Part shown: piece after piece, positions 7,251 to 26,850 of the stretch | How the letters are laid out: each line of letters starts with the position of its first letter | How positions within the stretch are numbered: position 1 is the first letter of the stretch | Assembly: GCA_029261355.1 (NCBI GenBank) | Contig: JAJDBM010000058.1 | Coordinates: 124,001-188,000 of the forward strand | Direction of reading: 5' to 3' | From: Nitrospirales bacterium | GTDB lineage: Bacteria > Nitrospirota > Nitrospiria > Nitrospirales > UBA8639 | DNA: 64,000 nt | Made by a program: the position numbers and the translations under genes | Notes under the pieces: model-generated | Database searches by the model: none | Told to the model about the DNA's origin: nothing | What the model saw: only the letters and a program-made list of their open reading frames with translations

Positions 7251-8549
7251 ATGACTGAACCAACGATTATTTGTCCACAATGCCGTACTGAGATCAAACT
7301 CACCGAGTCGCTCGCAGCGCCTCTGCTTGAAACGACTAAGCAAGACTATGAACAGAAGCTCGCGCAGAAAGATGCTGATTCAGCTAAGCGCGAAGCGGCG
7401 CTTGTTGTGCGTGAAGCTTCGATTGCGAAGGAAAGAGAAACCCTGGATAGCCAGGTTGCTGAAAAAATCAAACACGAACGAGTCAAAATCTCTGCCGAAG
7501 AAGCCAAGAAGGCTAAAATGGCGATAGGAACCGATCTGGAATTGAAAGCCAAAGAACTATCTGAACTACAGGGTGTACTCAAACAACGCGATGAGAAATT
7601 GGCAGAAGCCCAGAAAGCCCAAGCTGATCTCATCAAAAAACAACGTGAACTCGATGATGCGAAACGTGAGCTGGAACTGACGGTCCAAAAGCGTGTGCAA
7701 GCTGGGTTGAATGAGACGCGAGAACAAGCCAAGAAAGAAGCTGAAGAGTCGTTGAGCCTCAAAGTAAGGGAAAAAGAACAGACTATTTCATCAATGCAGA
7801 AACAAATCGAGGACCTGAAGCGTCGAGCCGAACAGGGGTCACAGCAGTTACAAGGTGAAGTCCAAGAACTTGAACTAGAAAATCTTCTGATGACAAAGTT
7901 TCCACTTGATAAAATTCAGCCAGTACCCAAGGGCGAACATGGAGGCGATGTGTTGCAACGAGTGGTCAGTGGATTTGGGCAACCATGCGGTACGATATTA
8001 TGGGAATCAAAACGCACCAAGAATTGGAGTGATGGCTGGCTGGTCAAATTACGCGAAGATCAACGACAGGCCAAGGCAGAGATTTCTGTGATTGTCAGTC
8101 AAGTGTTGCCGAAAGAATTAGAGACGTTCGGGGAAAAAGATGGTGTGTGGGTCACCCATCCCAAAGCGGCGTTGCCGGTAGCCATTGTCTTGCGTCATAC
8201 ACTCATGGAAGTCGCTTCAGCACGACAGGCAACCGAAGGTCAACAAACTAAAATGGAAATGGTCTATCAATACCTCATGGGGCCACGTTTCCGACAACGT
8301 GTGCAAGCCATCGTCGAAGGCTTTACCTCCATGCAAGAAGATCTTGATAAAGAACGCAGAGTCATCATGAAACAATGGGCCAAACGCGAAGAGCAAATTG
8401 ATCGGGTCATGCAATCCACCATTGGCATGTACGGCGATCTTCAGGGTATAGCGGGCAAAACACTTCAAGAAATTGAAGGCCTCGAACTGAAGTCGTTGGA
8501 TGTTCCCAAAGATGGTGGAGCAGTAGAAGGAGGGAAATTGTTTAGCTGA
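7251..8549 (+). CDS. DUF2130 protein with coiled coil
   Basis: This 432-residue protein opens with a CPQC knuckle (Cys8, Cys11), followed by about 190 residues of dense Lys/Glu/Ala coiled coil and then the DUF2130 domain. The domain contains FPLDKIQPVPKGEHGGDVLQ and ILWESKRTKNWSDGWLVKLR, an arrangement close to the PD-(D/E)XK-like core (Asp, E-x-K). DUF2130 proteins are widespread and uncharacterised; a nucleic-acid role is guessed from the E-x-K motif and the zinc-knuckle-like start. It stands alone, with about 270 bases before it and 150 after. The family call is firm; the function is unknown. Confidence 0.85.
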   Translation: MTEPTIICPQCRTEIKLTESLAAPLLETTKQDYEQKLAQKDADSAKREAALVVREASIAKERETLDSQVAEKIKHERVKISAEEAKKAKMAIGTDLELKAKELSELQGVLKQRDEKLAEAQKAQADLIKKQRELDDAKRELELTVQKRVQAGLNETREQAKKEAEESLSLKVREKEQTISSMQKQIEDLKRRAEQGSQQLQGEVQELELENLLMTKFPLDKIQPVPKGEHGGDVLQRVVSGFGQPCGTILWESKRTKNWSDGWLVKLREDQRQAKAEISVIVSQVLPKELETFGEKDGVWVTHPKAALPVAIVLRHTLMEVASARQATEGQQTKMEMVYQYLMGPRFRQRVQAIVEGFTSMQEDLDKERRVIMKQWAKREEQIDRVMQSTIGMYGDLQGIAGKTLQEIEGLELKSLDVPKDGGAVEGGKLFS

Positions 8550-19750: not shown

Positions 19751-19898
19751 GTAACATTTAACGGGATAAGTGTCACTCACTGTATCATTGAATATGCAGT
19801 GGCAATGACATGGGAAAACAGAAGACAGTAGTATTCACTACATTTACGGATGGCCTATCTGCGAAGTGTCTCACATAAGTGATTTTGGTTTGGACAAC

Positions 19899-20384
19899 AT
19901 GAGTCGAGTCGAAATTCATCCTATCACCCCACCTCATTACCATCAGTTGTCCGTGATGGTTGGGGAGCTGTTGTCAGAGATCATGGAGACCATACAAGAA
20001 AGGGTGTTTAATTATGATCAGAGAGAAACAGAGAACAGGGCCAAGGCATTAGTCGAGCAGGGGAAGTATTGGGTGTTTCTTGCTGAAGAAAAAGAATCTG
20101 CATCGATTATTGGGTTTGTTTCTGTGTATGAGAGTTATGCCCTGTATTCGGAAGGATCCTATGGAACGATACCAGAGTTGTATGTTCGTCCCAAGTGGCG
20201 GTCCCAAAACATTGGTAAACGTCTTCTGACGAAGGCCACGGATTTTGGGAAAATAAAAGAATGGCGAAGGCTAGAAGTCACTACACCTCCGCTACCCCAA
20301 TTTGAGCGAACGTTGACATTTTATCAAGCCAACGGATTTGAAGTATCGGGTGGGCGAAAATTGAAAATCCCTCTCTGTCTCTAG
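19899..20384 (+). CDS. GNAT-family N-acetyltransferase
   Basis: The 161-residue protein has the GNAT core: strand IIGFVSVYESYALY, then IPELYVRPKWRSQNIGKRLLTKATDFGK (the V-x-x-x-x-R-x-x-x-IG-x-x-L acetyl-CoA-binding motif), then LEVTTPPLP and ERTLTFYQANGFE. It would transfer an acetyl group from acetyl-CoA to an unknown amine. A GTG at 19866 gives a longer form; ATG 19899 starts right at the domain, but no good SD supports either. It stands between the VOC gene and a hydrolase gene, all rightward. Confidence 0.8.
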   Translation: MSRVEIHPITPPHYHQLSVMVGELLSEIMETIQERVFNYDQRETENRAKALVEQGKYWVFLAEEKESASIIGFVSVYESYALYSEGSYGTIPELYVRPKWRSQNIGKRLLTKATDFGKIKEWRRLEVTTPPLPQFERTLTFYQANGFEVSGGRKLKIPLCL

Positions 20385-21709: not shown

Positions 21710-22510
21710 TTACTTTTCCTCTACGACCGGATTCGTCAGCTTGCCTATTTTTTCGATTTCAATCGTGACTTGGTCTCCGGCTTTAAGAAAGACCGGGGGA
21801 GTCCTTGTAAATCCGACCCCGGAAGGCGTACCCGTCAAGATGACGGTGCCAGGGAGCAGCGTCGTGCCTTGGCTTAAGAAGCTAATCAATGTTGGGATAT
21901 CAAAAATCATATCGGATGTGTGTGAATCCTGCATCCTTTCGTCATTCAGCATGGTTGAGATTCTGAGATTGTTTGGACTAGGAATCTTGTCCTTGGTCAC
22001 GATGTATGGACCAAGTGGGCAAAATGTATCGAAGGATTTCCCTCGGCACCATTGTTTCCCACCACCGTTTTTTTGCCATCGACGCGCACTGACATCATTT
22101 GCGCATGTGTAGCCCAACACGTAATCCAGTGCTTCCTGTTGAGAGACATTTTTGGCTGCTTTTCCAATAATGACAGCCAACTCAGATTCATAATCCACTT
22201 CGTCTGTTGCCACACGAGGAATGACGATCGGATCGTGATGGGCATTCAGCGTATTAGATGCTTTGATAAACAGGACAGGATGTTCTGGAAGTTTCGCTCC
22301 TGTTTCTTCGGCATGGGCTCTGTAGTTTAGGCCAATGCAAAGTATGGTCGGAGGAAGAAGAGGGGCTAACAGTTTTCCAATTATCGCGGTTTGGTCTGTG
22401 ACCTGGAAATTCTCTAGAATGTCACCGTTGATCAATCGAGCCGTCTGATCGTCTATTCGTTCGCCGTAGCAGATTTGTCCAGCAGGTTCTCGAAATCTAA
22501 TAATGTTCAT
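21710..22510 (-). CDS. Fumarylacetoacetate hydrolase family protein
   Basis: The 266-residue protein has the FAH fold: a short N-terminal part with CIGLNYRAHAEE, then the metal-binding core VDYESELAVIIGK, GYTCANDVSARRWQ, CRGKSFDTFCPLGP and ILTGTPSGVGF. Family members hydrate, hydrolyse or decarboxylate 2-oxo-acids (2-hydroxyhepta-2,4-diene-1,7-dioate isomerase, acylpyruvase), so the exact substrate cannot be assigned. It is divergent from the DUF169 gene across about 195 bases and may share control with it. It converges on the SGNH gene with a gap of only 27 bases. Confidence 0.88.
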   Translation of the reverse strand: MNIIRFREPAGQICYGERIDDQTARLINGDILENFQVTDQTAIIGKLLAPLLPPTILCIGLNYRAHAEETGAKLPEHPVLFIKASNTLNAHHDPIVIPRVATDEVDYESELAVIIGKAAKNVSQQEALDYVLGYTCANDVSARRWQKNGGGKQWCRGKSFDTFCPLGPYIVTKDKIPSPNNLRISTMLNDERMQDSHTSDMIFDIPTLISFLSQGTTLLPGTVILTGTPSGVGFTRTPPVFLKAGDQVTIEIEKIGKLTNPVVEEK

Positions 22511-22704: not shown

Positions 22705-23433
22705 GTGGTCACGATTAAATGGGAAGAATTAGCCAATCGATTGAAGCAAACTTTGGGGCTCTCACATACCCCTATAGCCATCACATTTTCTCAGGAAGCC
22801 CCAGTAGGTGTGCCGATCCATGATGGAATGGTGCCTGATCCAAGTGCGGATGGACGTACTGGAAAAGTGACGGCCGGTTGTGTGTTCTGGATTCATTCTG
22901 AAGATCGTACTTTCACAACTAAAGCAGACGATCATTTTAATTGTAGCGTGGGGAGTGTGACCCATGGTCTCAAGTCGCTTGGTGATGTCATGCAGAACGA
23001 AGATGTTCAAGGTCTCTTGGAGAGTAAGTGGGTGACATCTGAAGAAGCCATGCAACTACCAGTCGTTAAGACCCAGTATAAGTATATCACCTATGGTCCT
23101 GTTTCTCAGACAAGTATTGATCCAGATGTCATTCTTCTTCGTCTGAGTGCTTTTCAGGGTATGGTGTTGCACGATGCCTTTGGCGATATGGAGATTGTGG
23201 GCAAGCCTCAATGTCATATTATTCCTCTTGCCAAAGAGGAAAACCAAATTGCCTTGAGCACAGGTTGTACGCTGAGCCGTATTCGCACGGGCATGTCTCC
23301 TACTGAAATGACCTGTACGATTCCTGCTAATCGATTGGCCGAGGTTGTTGAAAAATTAGAGGCCCGGCGTGAAGCGAATGCTTCTGTCGCAAGTTATGCC
23401 AATGCGGATGCTCGTCGATTCCACAAACAGTAA
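22705..23433 (+). CDS. DUF169 family protein
   Basis: The 242-residue protein fits DUF169: ANRLKQTLGLSHTPIAITF at the start, the Cys-bearing block VTAGCVFWIH, DHFNCSVGSVTHGL, and ALSTGCTLSRIRTGM near the end. Three conserved-looking Cys could bind metal or cofactor. DUF169 has no known activity; members occur in anaerobes, methanogens and many environmental bacteria. It starts with GTG after GGAGGAAAA. The radical SAM gene begins 32 bases after its stop and the ATP-grasp gene follows, which suggests one pathway. Confidence 0.85.
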   Translation: MVTIKWEELANRLKQTLGLSHTPIAITFSQEAPVGVPIHDGMVPDPSADGRTGKVTAGCVFWIHSEDRTFTTKADDHFNCSVGSVTHGLKSLGDVMQNEDVQGLLESKWVTSEEAMQLPVVKTQYKYITYGPVSQTSIDPDVILLRLSAFQGMVLHDAFGDMEIVGKPQCHIIPLAKEENQIALSTGCTLSRIRTGMSPTEMTCTIPANRLAEVVEKLEARREANASVASYANADARRFHKQ

Positions 23434-23464
23434 TCATATTAAGGTTTATCGAGAACAACCAAGC

Positions 23465-25060
23465 ATGATAACGCATACTTCTTCAGCATTGAACCAGCGC
23501 GATACGCCTCTTAAACGACCTGGGGCTATCCTGCTTATTTCTTGTTATGAACTGGGGCATCAGCCCATTGGACTAGCTCAACCAGTTGGATTTCTTGACC
23601 AACAGGGGTATGCCCCGCTTACTCTAGATTTATCGGTGGAAGATTTTAATTCTAAACTTGTGGAGCAGGCATGCGTGGTCGGTATTTCCGTTCCCATGCA
23701 CACGGCACTCTCGTTAGGGTGCCAAGTAGCTGAGCGTATTCGTCAAGTCAATCCCAGCGCTCATATCTGTTTTTATGGACTTTATGTTTCACTGAACGCG
23801 GAGTACGTATTTGGTCACCTTGCCGACTCAGTGATTGGTGGAGAGTATGAATTGCCTTTGATAAACCTTCTTGACCAATTGGGTCGGTCTCAACGACTTC
23901 CTCAAACTCACAATGACACTGGCACGGTGTTTACGACACAAGTTGAAGGCGTGAGTTGTGCAGATTCGATTGTCCCTCCTTTCTTGAAACGGATTAATTG
24001 GTCATCTCATGGTTCAACAACCGGTGCGACTGATGGTGGGGGATTTCCTGTTCCCATACGTACACAGCTTTCCCCTCTTTGCGAATATGCTCGCTTAGAA
24101 TATCAGGGCCAGGAACATGTGGTGGGATATGTTGAGGCGAGTCGAGGATGCTTGCATACCTGCTTGCATTGTCCGATCGTTCCTGTTTACCAAGGCAAGT
24201 TTTTCCTGATTCCGGCTCAAGTTGTCTTGGCGGATATTCGACAACAGGTTAAAGCTGGTGCTGTCCATATTACGTTTGGTGATCCAGATTTTTTAAACGG
24301 ACCTGGTCATTCACTGAACATTGTTCGGGTCATGCATGAAGAGTTCCCCGATATCACTTTTGATTTCACCACTAAAATCGAGCATATTCTGAAGCACCGA
24401 TCACTCTTCCGAGAGTTTAGTCAACTGGGGTGCCTGTTCGTGATTTCTGCAGTCGAGTCATTTAGTGAGACCGTGCTTGTTCATTTAGAGAAGGGGCATA
24501 CGCGACAAGACATCTTCATAGCGCACGACATTCTTCAGTCATTCGGAATTACCCTTCGTCCTTCTTTAGTGGCCTTTACTCCATGGACCACTTTAGATGA
24601 CTATGTAGAAATGTTTGCCTTGGTGGAACGCCATGGATTGATCGACTGTATTGATCCTGTTCAATATAGTGTTCGACTCTTAGTCCCTCCAGGCTCGGCA
24701 TTGCTGAACCCTCCTGATTCTCACTCCACACCGATACTCCAGTTTCTCGGTTCACTCAATCAACAAAAATTTCAACATACATGGAATCATCCTGATCCAC
24801 GCATGGACTCGTTACCGCAATCGGTGGCGAAGGTCGTAGAGAGTAGCGCTAAAATGAAAGAAGATCTTGAACATACCTTTTATCGTTTATGGGAATTGGT
24901 ATATGACAGTGCGGGACTTGAATTTTCTTCTTTACACAAAACGGCTTCGATGGATCCTGATCGTGTACGTCCGCCCAGGATGACCGAACCCTGGTTTTGC
25001 TGTTCGGAGCCCACGACGGATCAATTCAAAACTGTTGAGTGTTCCTCCAAGAAGTCATAG
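23465..25060 (+). CDS. B12-binding-type radical SAM protein with CCSEP tail (CUAEP/CCAEP-tail family)
   Basis: The 531-residue protein has an N-terminal B12-binding-like region (AILLISCYELGHQPIGLAQP onward), a radical SAM domain with the cluster motif Cys229-x3-Cys233-x2-Cys236 (RGCLHTCLHCP), and a C-terminal tail WFCCSEPT (Cys512-Cys513). That tail is a variant of the CUAEP/CCAEP ending of a radical SAM family in which some members carry selenocysteine; here both positions are Cys codons (TGC TGT). The cobalamin-binding DxHxxG motif is not evident. ATG 23465 is chosen because the earlier frame overlaps the DUF169 gene and the fold starts after it. The reaction is unknown; the ATP-grasp gene follows. 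Confidence 0.83.
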   Translation: MITHTSSALNQRDTPLKRPGAILLISCYELGHQPIGLAQPVGFLDQQGYAPLTLDLSVEDFNSKLVEQACVVGISVPMHTALSLGCQVAERIRQVNPSAHICFYGLYVSLNAEYVFGHLADSVIGGEYELPLINLLDQLGRSQRLPQTHNDTGTVFTTQVEGVSCADSIVPPFLKRINWSSHGSTTGATDGGGFPVPIRTQLSPLCEYARLEYQGQEHVVGYVEASRGCLHTCLHCPIVPVYQGKFFLIPAQVVLADIRQQVKAGAVHITFGDPDFLNGPGHSLNIVRVMHEEFPDITFDFTTKIEHILKHRSLFREFSQLGCLFVISAVESFSETVLVHLEKGHTRQDIFIAHDILQSFGITLRPSLVAFTPWTTLDDYVEMFALVERHGLIDCIDPVQYSVRLLVPPGSALLNPPDSHSTPILQFLGSLNQQKFQHTWNHPDPRMDSLPQSVAKVVESSAKMKEDLEHTFYRLWELVYDSAGLEFSSLHKTASMDPDRVRPPRMTEPWFCCSEPTTDQFKTVECSSKKS

Positions 25061-25145
25061 GTCATGAGTAACCCATAGCGAGTGGTGTGGTGCTCTCTAT
25101 AACTTCTCTCCATCGCTTTAGGCATAACCCGTAATAGCTTTTCCC

Positions 25146-26417
25146 ATGGCACATCTCCTTCTCCTCCTTCCATCCATGAGCTATCGAGGTGAAGCTTTTC
25201 TGGAAGCCGCTCACAAGGTTGGCGTGTCCCTTACGGTTGCTGGGGATGCTCCACCAGATTTTCTTGAGCCATCACTTGATAGTTTTTTGACCCTTGACCT
25301 CTACAGTCCCAATACCGCGGTTCAGACTGTTCTGGAATTTGACAAAACTTCGCCTATTGATGTGGTTCTGGGGGTAAACGATCACACGGCAATCTTGGCA
25401 TCGACCCTCTCTGTCGCTTTAGGTCTTTCTGCTAATTCCGTAGACTCGGTTCGTGCTGCAAGTAACAAGCAGATGATGCGTAGTCTGTTGCGTAAGGCCG
25501 GACTTCCTTGTCCAAATTTTGTCGTGGTGAAATTTGATGAAAATCCCGCAGATGTTGTTCAACAGGTCACCTTTCCCTGTGTGCTTAAACCTCTCACCCT
25601 CTCAGGTAGTTGTGGGGTGATTCGTGCAGATGATTGGGAGAGTTTTCAAAGTGCTTTTATCCGAATTGGTAATCTCTTGACGGCCATTTCTAGGCCAGAT
25701 CAAGACGTTGCTAGCTGGCAAATCCTTATTGAGGACTTTATCCCAGGAATCGAAGTTGCACTTGAAGGGTTACTTGCAAAGAATGTTTTTCATCCTTTAA
25801 CCCTGTTTGATAAACCTGACCCGCTTAATGGTCCTTATTTTGAAGAAACACTATATGTGACGCCTTCACGTCTTCCGCCAGAAACACAAGAACGAACTAT
25901 TGAGTCTCTGGCAAAGGCCGCCCGTGCCATTGGGCTCAGAGAAGGACCCGTTCATGGGGAGCTACGAATTCATGGTCAAAATATCTGGGTGATTGAGGTG
26001 GCCGCACGAAGTATCGGCGGGAAATGTTCTCGTATGTTGGAGTTTGGGACCGGCAGGTCTTTAGAGGAACTGATTCTGCTTCATGCACTTGGACAAGAAC
26101 TTCCTTCTTTGCATCTTACGAGGCGTGCAGGGGGAGTGATGATGATACCGATCCTTCAAGAAGGTATGTTAGAACGAGTTGACGGTCAAGAAGCTGCACG
26201 ACATGTTCTAGGAGTTGAGGAATTGGACATTACAATGCAATCAGGTGACCACTTGACTCCGTTGCCCGAAGGCAAACGATATCTTGGGTTTATCTTAGCA
26301 AGGGGAGCACGACCGGAAGAGGTAGAGGAAACTCTGCGAGAATCATACCGATGTCTAACCGTTGTGATGAGGTCACAGGGTTCACGTGTTGTTCCTGCAG
26401 GAGTCTTTCGAGTTTAG
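25146..26417 (+). CDS. ATP-grasp ligase, carbamoyl-phosphate-synthase-like
   Basis: The 423-residue protein has an N-terminal pre-ATP-grasp fold (HLLLLLPSMSYRGEAFLEAAH), the ATP-grasp domain with FPCVLKPLTLSGSCGVIRAD (ATP Lys and Gly loop), ILIEDFIPGIEVALEGLL, and the metal block GPVHGELRIHGQNIWVIEVAARSIGG, plus a C-terminal domain. It resembles L-amino-acid ligases and PurK-type enzymes that make an amide or peptide bond through an acyl-phosphate. With the upstream radical SAM and DUF169 genes it may build or tailor an unknown small molecule. The spacing of 85 bases to the radical SAM gene is compatible with co-transcription. Confidence 0.83.
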   Translation: MAHLLLLLPSMSYRGEAFLEAAHKVGVSLTVAGDAPPDFLEPSLDSFLTLDLYSPNTAVQTVLEFDKTSPIDVVLGVNDHTAILASTLSVALGLSANSVDSVRAASNKQMMRSLLRKAGLPCPNFVVVKFDENPADVVQQVTFPCVLKPLTLSGSCGVIRADDWESFQSAFIRIGNLLTAISRPDQDVASWQILIEDFIPGIEVALEGLLAKNVFHPLTLFDKPDPLNGPYFEETLYVTPSRLPPETQERTIESLAKAARAIGLREGPVHGELRIHGQNIWVIEVAARSIGGKCSRMLEFGTGRSLEELILLHALGQELPSLHLTRRAGGVMMIPILQEGMLERVDGQEAARHVLGVEELDITMQSGDHLTPLPEGKRYLGFILARGARPEEVEETLRESYRCLTVVMRSQGSRVVPAGVFRV

Positions 26418-26424
26418 TAGGGTT

Positions 26425-26850
26425 CTAGGCCGGTACGATCTCCTTAGCCGTTGTCTTCATCCAGGCATTCAGGCTGCTGACTTGCTCCGCAACATCAGGA
26501 ATTATTGTTAAGTCATGGACCCATGTACCTTGGACTTCTTCATCGTTTCCTGTGATCTCTTTTTTAATCGTCTCAATTTCTGTGTCAAATCTTGTCACAG
26601 GCTGGGACTCAATCCTCCTCACTCTTCTTTTTCCGAACATGGTTCCATCTGCGCCAAGATCGCACACAAAATGGACCAGGTCTAGCCGACCATCAGGTAG
26701 AGTCTTGGCTACCATACGATAAGTAGTTCCTTGCTTTGAATGCACTATCACTGCCTTATAAAACCGTTCGCCTTTGGATGGATCAACCTCAACGGCAGTT
26801 AAATCTATCGCCGGTGGTGGGGGTGCTGCGTTTGTATCAACTTCTCCCAT
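26425..26850 (-). CDS. Protein of unknown function
   Basis: I do not recognise this 141-residue soluble protein. It starts with a Pro/Ala-rich stretch (NAAPPPPAIDLTAVEVDP), continues with strands (FYKAVIVHSKQGTTYRMVAKTLPDGRLDLVHFVCDLG) and ends in helices. No signal peptide or membrane helix is visible. An AAAGGAG SD precedes the ATG, and the next eight bases contain CTCC, which can pair with that SD to form a small hairpin (AGGAG-TAC-CTCCT). A 14-bp AT palindrome (AATAATTAATTATT, 26874-26887) lies upstream. The gene converges tightly on the ATP-grasp gene (7-base gap). Confidence 0.7.
   Translation of the reverse strand: MGEVDTNAAPPPPAIDLTAVEVDPSKGERFYKAVIVHSKQGTTYRMVAKTLPDGRLDLVHFVCDLGADGTMFGKRRVRRIESQPVTRFDTEIETIKKEITGNDEEVQGTWVHDLTIIPDVAEQVSSLNAWMKTTAKEIVPA

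What the first reader, a model, noticed from the sequence alone, without database searches (positions are those of the whole stretch)
22705..26417. DUF169 - CCSEP-tail radical SAM - ATP-grasp cluster as a possible undescribed biosynthetic pathway
Seen: three rightward genes with 31- and 85-base gaps, encoding a Cys-containing DUF169 protein, a B12-binding-type radical SAM enzyme (Cys229/233/236) ending in WFCCSEPT, and an ATP-grasp ligase. Known: the CUAEP/CCAEP tail marks a radical SAM family that includes selenoproteins; ATP-grasp enzymes make amide-type bonds; DUF169 has no known reaction. Inference: the radical SAM enzyme modifies a substrate that the ligase joins to an amine, with the tail Cys pair acting as redox or ligand residues. 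An FAH-family hydrolase is divergent next door and may belong.
Basis: partly seen in the sequence, partly recalled or inferred. Interest (0 to 1): 0.72.

Follow-up and report, generated by a model that had tools for sequence, protein, structure and literature searches.

The report
ArsL-like radical enzyme plus peptide ligase
A bacterial gene set, shared across about a dozen phyla, nearly always pairs a radical enzyme related to the one that builds an arsenic antibiotic with an enzyme that joins amino acids, so it probably makes an undescribed small peptide-like compound from an unusual amino acid.

Summary
In detail: DUF169 (22705-23433), CCSEP-tail radical SAM (23465-25060) and ATP-grasp ligase (25146-26417) lie in that order with 31- and 85-base gaps. 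The radical SAM enzyme belongs to NCBIfam NF040546 (CUAEP/CCAEP-tail; 640 bits, cut-off 500). [quoted passage not shown] The ligase is of the L-amino-acid (dipeptide) ligase family. Among 198 Nitrospirota genomes the two occur in exactly the same 15, in five of them on different contigs; of 23 genomes (mostly other phyla) where the ligase is not beside the radical enzyme, 18 still carry it. The pair is a real functional unit. DUF169 and the Fe-S carrier Nfu are accessory partners, each in part of the sets. A convergent 141-aa gene (26425-26850) travels with the set in Nitrospirales; the FAH hydrolase does not belong. Best reading: the radical enzyme makes a SAM-derived 2-amino-4-substituted butanoate and the ligase builds a dipeptide from it. 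ArsL operons also carry an ATP-grasp ligase of another subfamily. ACP chemistry and acceptor are inferred; arsenic genes are nearly absent.

The parts
22705..23433 (+). DUF169 protein (242 aa), radical-SAM-linked subfamily with invariant C59, H77, C80, C170, C188
   Evidence: PF02596 76.8 bits; 26-sequence alignment A2; C59 and C80 shared with canonical DUF169, H77 and C188 special to this subfamily; model pLDDT 84, no clear PDB fold match
23465..25060 (+). CUAEP/CCAEP-tail radical SAM enzyme (531 aa), ArsL-related
   Evidence: NF040546 640.3 bits (cut-off 500), NF040542 ArsL 302.2 bits; tree; model pLDDT 88.5, nearest fold AprD4 Z 24.8
24149..24172 (+). CX3CX2C [4Fe-4S]/SAM motif (Cys229, Cys233, Cys236)
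   Evidence: sequence; invariant in A1 and in four ArsL proteins
24992..25015 (+). C-terminal tail WFCCSEPT; the second Cys is selenocysteine (TGA) in 48 of 80 relatives
25146..26417 (+). ATP-grasp L-amino-acid ligase (423 aa)
   Evidence: PF13535 107 bits, PF18603 LAL_C2 52 bits; 3vot BL00235 1.3e-33; same genomes as the radical SAM gene
26425..26850 (-). convergent 141-aa protein of unknown family, travels with the set in Nitrospirales
   Evidence: present in all 20 radical-SAM-positive relatives and 1 of 40 negatives; near the radical SAM gene in 23 of 81 loci; a relative has no Pfam match

Best explanation
The genes encode a short biosynthetic pathway. Step 1 (inferred from kinship with ArsL): the radical SAM enzyme cleaves SAM in the ArsL manner and transfers its 3-amino-3-carboxypropyl group to a soft, thiol-binding acceptor held by the C-terminal Cys-Cys (Cys-Sec in most relatives), giving a 2-amino-4-substituted butanoate, a methionine- or glutamate-like amino acid. 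Step 2 (inferred from the ligase family): the ATP-grasp enzyme activates one amino-acid carboxylate with ATP and joins the new amino acid to a second one as a dipeptide. DUF169, a protein with four invariant cysteines, and/or the Fe-S carrier Nfu serve the radical enzyme, most likely by cluster supply or by handling the acceptor (weak inference). Shown here: radical enzyme and ligase form one functional unit across phyla, the family memberships, the tail conservation and the relation to ArsL. Not shown: the reaction, the acceptor, the dipeptide partner.
For: The same 20 of 60 relatives hold radical SAM and ligase (19 over the family cut-off plus one fragment), none of the other 40 has the ligase; the same 15 of 198 phylum-wide, with the two genes on different contigs in G165, G202, G217, G224, G226; 18 of 23 further genomes where the ligase was not beside the radical SAM gene carry it elsewhere at 530-638 bits against 146 bits for the only other ATP-grasp listed. 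ArsL is the second-best family at 302 bits, the next is at 34 bits; 34-39% identity over about 410 aa; 54 invariant residues shared, including CX3CX2C and a tail Cys. ArsL transfers ACP from SAM to As(III) (PMC8552651; PMC12159101). The ligase is best matched by BL00235, which makes Met-Ala (PMC4302092). Six of seven ArsL plasmid loci read also carry an ATP-grasp ligase, only 23-26% identical to this one in the three compared, so the pairing looks independently acquired. An Nfu gene stands directly before the ligase gene in 7 of 7 ligase loci read from other families of the class.
Against: The ArsL cut-off (450) is not reached and the tail differs (RCCLKC against CCAEP), so substrate and even the SAM cleavage mode may differ; the nearest solved fold, AprD4, uses the ordinary 5'-deoxyadenosyl radical (own knowledge). 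No arsenic genes near the set except in 1 of 81 loci (L089). CUAEP-only invariants C27, H32, H79, H235 point to active-site changes. Five Planctomycetota/Verrucomicrobiota genomes have the radical enzyme but no ligase of this family.
Confidence: 0.42

Rival explanations
1. The radical SAM enzyme uses ordinary 5'-deoxyadenosyl-radical chemistry (dehydration, epimerisation, C-C or C-S bond formation) on a free amino acid or small acid, and the ligase then makes the dipeptide or amide. The Cys-Cys/Cys-Sec tail re-reduces or donates H to the substrate radical.
For: Nearest folds AprD4 (Z 24.8), OxsB, MgmA, TsrM; the tail Cys/Sec pair could be a redox pair or H-atom donor; ArsL threshold not met.
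Against: The nearest sequence family by far is ArsL (302 against 34 bits), and ArsL shares a tail Cys pair.
Confidence: 0.33
2. It is an organoarsenical pathway like arsinothricin, with a ligase making an arsinothricin-type dipeptide antibiotic.
For: ArsL kinship; ArsL operons also hold an ATP-grasp ligase; one relative locus, L089, has ArsM- and ArsR-like genes nearby.
Against: Apart from L089, CUAEP loci show no arsenic genes within 8 kb: one further weak ArsM-like hit (L077), no ArsB, ArsQ or ArsL-operon MFS homologues at all; ArsL cut-off and RCCLKC tail not met.
Confidence: 0.12
3. A methylcobalamin-dependent radical SAM methylase acts on an amino acid before ligation.
For: B12-domain-type fold; PF02310 24 bits.
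Against: PF02310 is below cut-off; AprD4 shows that this fold need not use cobalamin (own knowledge).
Confidence: 0.08
4. Ribosomal peptide (RiPP) maturation: the radical enzyme and the ATP-grasp enzyme modify a ribosomal precursor.
For: Radical SAM and ATP-grasp enzymes occur in RiPP clusters (own knowledge).
Against: No conserved small ORF of 70 aa or more beside the pair in 81 loci other than Nfu, CDGSH and lineage-specific genes; the ligase is of the free amino-acid type with LAL_C2; the genes are often unlinked.
Confidence: 0.03
5. Chance or shared-ancestry neighbourhood without functional link.
For: None beyond relatedness of the genomes.
Against: Identical presence pattern even when unlinked, over 12 genera, and recurrence in 12 phylum-level groups.
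Confidence: 0.02

Closest known systems
NCBIfam NF040546, CUAEP/CCAEP-tail radical SAM (seleno)protein
   Same: The window protein is a full member (640 bits, tail and cluster motif)
   Different: The family is named by its tail only; no held paper mentions it. The near-obligate ligase and the DUF169 and Nfu partners are added here
ArsL (NF040542) and the arsQML arsinothricin operon
   Same: Sister family by sequence, Cys-rich C-terminus, and in 6 of 7 loci read an ATP-grasp ligase in the same gene group
   Different: No ArsM/ArsR/ArsQ here, different tail, score below the ArsL cut-off, ligases only about 25% identical
L-amino acid ligases (BL00235, BacD)
   Same: ATP-grasp_4 + LAL_C2 domains, GPYFEE region aligned with GPFFEE of BL00235
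   Different: Distinct subfamily with a nearly invariant FDKPDPLxGPxFEETxYxTPSR stretch, found in Nitrospirota only with the CUAEP enzyme
DUF169 / COG2043
   Same: PF02596 member
   Different: Separate radical-SAM-linked subfamily with extra invariant H77 and C188

Membership tests
NF040546 CUAEP/CCAEP-tail radical SAM | score above curated cut-off (500) | tested here: met
   640.3 bits
NF040546 CUAEP/CCAEP-tail radical SAM | C-terminal C[C/U]AEP tail | tested here: met
   CCSEP in the window, CCAEP/CUAEP in relatives; Ser for Ala is a single-sequence variant
NF040546 CUAEP/CCAEP-tail radical SAM | CX3CX2C cluster motif | tested here: met
   C229, C233, C236 invariant
ArsL (NF040542) | score above curated cut-off (450) | tested here: not met
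   302.2 bits
ArsL (NF040542) | RCCLKC C-terminus | tested here: not met
   window has a CCSEP tail; four ArsL proteins end RCCLKC
ArsL (NF040542) | ars operon context (ArsM, ArsR, ArsQ) | tested here: not met
   no such genes within 8 kb of the window set; ArsM and ArsR together in 1 of 81 loci
ArsL (NF040542) | ACP transfer from SAM | not testable with these tools
   needs an enzyme assay
L-amino acid ligase | ATP-grasp_4 and LAL_C2 domains above cut-off | tested here: met
   107.3 and 52.4 bits
L-amino acid ligase | ATP-dependent dipeptide formation | not testable with these tools
   needs an enzyme assay; BL00235 is the best solved relative
DUF169 (PF02596) | score above gathering cut-off (27) | tested here: met
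   76.8 bits
Cobalamin-dependent radical SAM | B12-binding domain PF02310 above cut-off (32.1) | tested here: not met
   24.2 bits
Cobalamin-dependent radical SAM | binds cobalamin | not testable with these tools
   fold of that group, which includes members that do not use cobalamin (own knowledge)
RiPP cluster | conserved precursor peptide gene | tested here: inconclusive
   none seen among ORFs of 70 aa or more in 81 loci; shorter ORFs not searched

The most novel reading that the evidence does not exclude
A radical SAM family, mostly selenoenzymes, spread over 12 phylum-level groups transfers the ACP group of SAM to a non-arsenic soft acceptor (for example a selenium, sulfur or other metalloid species) held by its Cys-Sec or Cys-Cys tail, and a dedicated ligase turns the product into a new class of dipeptides, with DUF169 as a dedicated Fe-S or metalloid handling protein.
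Probability: 0.25. Interest if true: 0.85.

Novelty: new variant of a known kind. Interest (0 to 1): 0.62.

Why it matters
It turns a family known only by its tail (CUAEP/CCAEP) into a defined, testable pathway: an ArsL-like radical enzyme with a near-obligate amino-acid ligase, found in Nitrospirota, Rokubacteria, Poribacteria, Acidobacteriota, Gemmatimonadota, Chloroflexota and others, mostly uncultured. It predicts a product class, gives DUF169 a first functional context (partner of a radical SAM enzyme), and offers a setting in which the role of a C-terminal selenocysteine in a radical SAM enzyme can be tested. It also shows that arsinothricin-type operons themselves carry an ATP-grasp ligase that the held papers do not discuss.

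Tried and rejected
FAH hydrolase (21710-22510) as a member: counterpart beside only 1 of 80 relatives, rejected. DUF169 as a strict substitute for Nfu: in 81 loci the two never stand together near the radical SAM gene (29 and 28 loci, 0 both, 10 expected if independent), but four genomes (G165, G200, G224, G226) hold both at separate places, so strict exclusion is rejected; what remains is that the radical-SAM-positive Nitrospirales genomes checked, all but G002, have no NifU-domain protein yet have DUF169. The DUF169/Nfu label needs at least 3 changes on the radical SAM tree. Arsenic context: rejected for the family at large. The ligase and the ArsL-operon ligases as one inherited pair: only 23-26% identity, not supported. 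DUF169 fold: no usable PDB match by Foldseek or VIA-align (best Z 4.6), no conclusion drawn. The distance of the tail to the cluster in the model could not be measured (coordinates not available). The Haft and Gwadz 2023 and Haft and Tolstoy 2025 selenoprotein papers are not held, so prior mention of these neighbourhoods there cannot be excluded. A 2026 selenoproteome review has no occurrence of the words tail or DUF169. No DUF169 relative in plasmids. A first neighbour clustering by Louvain split the families too finely and was replaced.
Full report
WHAT IS THERE. The first encodes a PF02596/DUF169 protein, the second a radical SAM protein, the third an ATP-grasp ligase with the L-amino acid ligase C-terminal domain LAL_C2. 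The window lies in a Nitrospirales-like genome: the nearest relatives in the radical SAM tree are MAGs titled Nitrospirales bacterium NPIRA01 and NPIRA04.

THE RADICAL SAM ENZYME. It scores 640 bits against NF040546, the CUAEP/CCAEP-tail family (cut-off 500); the second best family is ArsL at 302 bits and the next is at 34 bits. A genome-contig scan found 323 relatives, of which 80 were kept. The tail WFC[C/U]AEP is present in every relative whose end can be read; in 48 of 80 the second position is an in-frame TGA followed by AEP, i.e. presumed selenocysteine. The window has CCSEP. Plasmid records supplied four ArsL proteins, 34-39% identical to the best-matching family members over about 410 residues and all ending RCCLKC. 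A joint alignment shares 54 invariant residues, including the CX3CX2C motif and one tail Cys; C27, H32, H79, H235 and the E508/W510/F511 tail residues are invariant only in the CUAEP family (the tail alignment crosses a long gap and is plausible rather than proven). The AlphaFold model is confident (pLDDT 88.5) and resembles AprD4 (Z 24.8), OxsB, MgmA and TsrM, i.e. the B12-domain radical SAM group, without evidence that cobalamin is used.

THE LIGASE. Its best solved relative is BL00235 (1.3e-33), followed by BacD. BL00235 is reported to make Met-Ala (PMC4302092). In 41 family members the stretch FDKPDPLxGPxFEETxYxTPSR is nearly invariant.

THE LINK. Among 60 relatives the radical SAM gene is in 20 (19 over the cut-off, one fragmentary), the ligase in exactly the same 20, DUF169 in 18 of them, and the convergent 141-aa gene at 26425-26850 in all 20 plus one other; the 40 negatives have no ligase and no DUF169 match at the thresholds used. 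Phylum-wide, 15 of 198 genomes have the radical SAM gene and exactly those 15 have the ligase, although in G165, G202, G217, G224 and G226 the two lie on different contigs. The chance of an identical set by random draw is about 8e-23, an overstatement because genomes are related, but the patchy spread over 12 genera and the separate positions argue against simple shared ancestry. Elsewhere, 45 of 81 loci have the ligase within seven genes; of 23 genomes without it there (some only because the contig ends), 18 carry a strong orthologue elsewhere (530-638 bits) and five, all Planctomycetota or Verrucomicrobiota, do not. This is a near-obligate pair across phyla.

DUF169 AND NFU. Beside the radical SAM gene DUF169 occurs in 29 loci and an Nfu/NifU-domain Fe-S carrier in 28, never both; Nfu comes in three architectures. 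I first read this as replacement. Testing further genomes changed that: DUF169 beside the radical SAM gene and Nfu beside the ligase coexist in G165 and G224, and both are present in G200 and G226. On the other hand the window's genome and most of its radical-SAM-positive relatives in the order have no NifU-domain protein at all. In a wider set of radical-SAM-positive genomes, DUF169 of this subfamily was found in 15 of 33, several times away from the radical SAM gene. Both are best seen as accessory proteins of the same system. The radical-SAM-linked DUF169 subfamily has C59, H77, C80, C170 and C188 invariant, of which H77 and C188 are absent from canonical DUF169. In one MAG (L058) the radical SAM and DUF169 reading frames are continuous, which could be a fusion or a lost stop. 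Four conserved Cys and the company of Nfu make an Fe-S or metal-binding role plausible, not shown.

MECHANISM. ArsL is the relative with a known reaction: ACP transfer from SAM to arsenite (PMC8552651; PMC12159101). If its relative here works alike, its product is an alpha-amino acid by construction, which is what an L-amino acid ligase needs. ArsL loci of Alicyclobacillus, Priestia, Pantoea and Klebsiella carry an ATP-grasp ligase as well, of a different subfamily in the three compared, so nature appears to have made this pairing more than once; the Pseudomonas amygdali locus lacks one. Arsenic itself is unlikely to be the general acceptor: only 1 of 81 loci has ArsM- and ArsR-like genes nearby. 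The acceptor remains open; a soft element bound by Cys-Cys or Cys-Sec is my guess.

CONFIDENCE. Radical enzyme and ligase are one functional unit: about 0.95. Ligase acts on amino acids: about 0.75. ACP transfer: about 0.45. DUF169 as Fe-S or metal partner: about 0.4.

Noticed in passing
L120, L122, L123, L124, L125, L126 (plasmid ArsL loci): Arsinothricin-type (RCCLKC radical SAM) gene groups carry an ATP-grasp ligase, in most a CMD/AhpD-like small protein, a CobW-type GTPase and an aquaporin; no held paper mentions arsinothricin together with ATP-grasp. Suggests a peptide form of the arsenic amino acid.
   Followed up: partly
window 26425-26850 (-): 141-aa protein without Pfam match above cut-off, convergent to the ligase, co-occurs with the set in 20 of 20 positive Nitrospirales and 1 of 40 negatives; one conserved Cys (C63).
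   Followed up: partly
L089, about 7330-8513 (-): The only CUAEP locus of 81 with both ArsM- and ArsR-like genes nearby (Chloroflexota).
   Followed up: no
window 19866-20384 (+): GNAT acetyltransferase with weak resemblance to ArsN1 arsinothricin resistance proteins (21.7 bits, cut-off 170); not conserved with the set.
   Followed up: partly
window genome G000 and most Nitrospirales relatives: No NifU-domain (PF01106) protein found in the whole genome at E 1e-8, unlike other families of the class.
   Followed up: no
L058 10001-12232: Radical SAM and DUF169 reading frames are continuous in one MAG: fusion or lost stop codon.
   Followed up: partly
L093, L095, L098, L106, L111, L116: A CDGSH iron-sulfur protein gene stands divergently next to the radical SAM gene in Rokubacteria.
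   Followed up: no
window 21710-22510 (-): FAH-family hydrolase, divergent from the set, with a counterpart in only one close relative (L039); not part of the system.
   Followed up: yes
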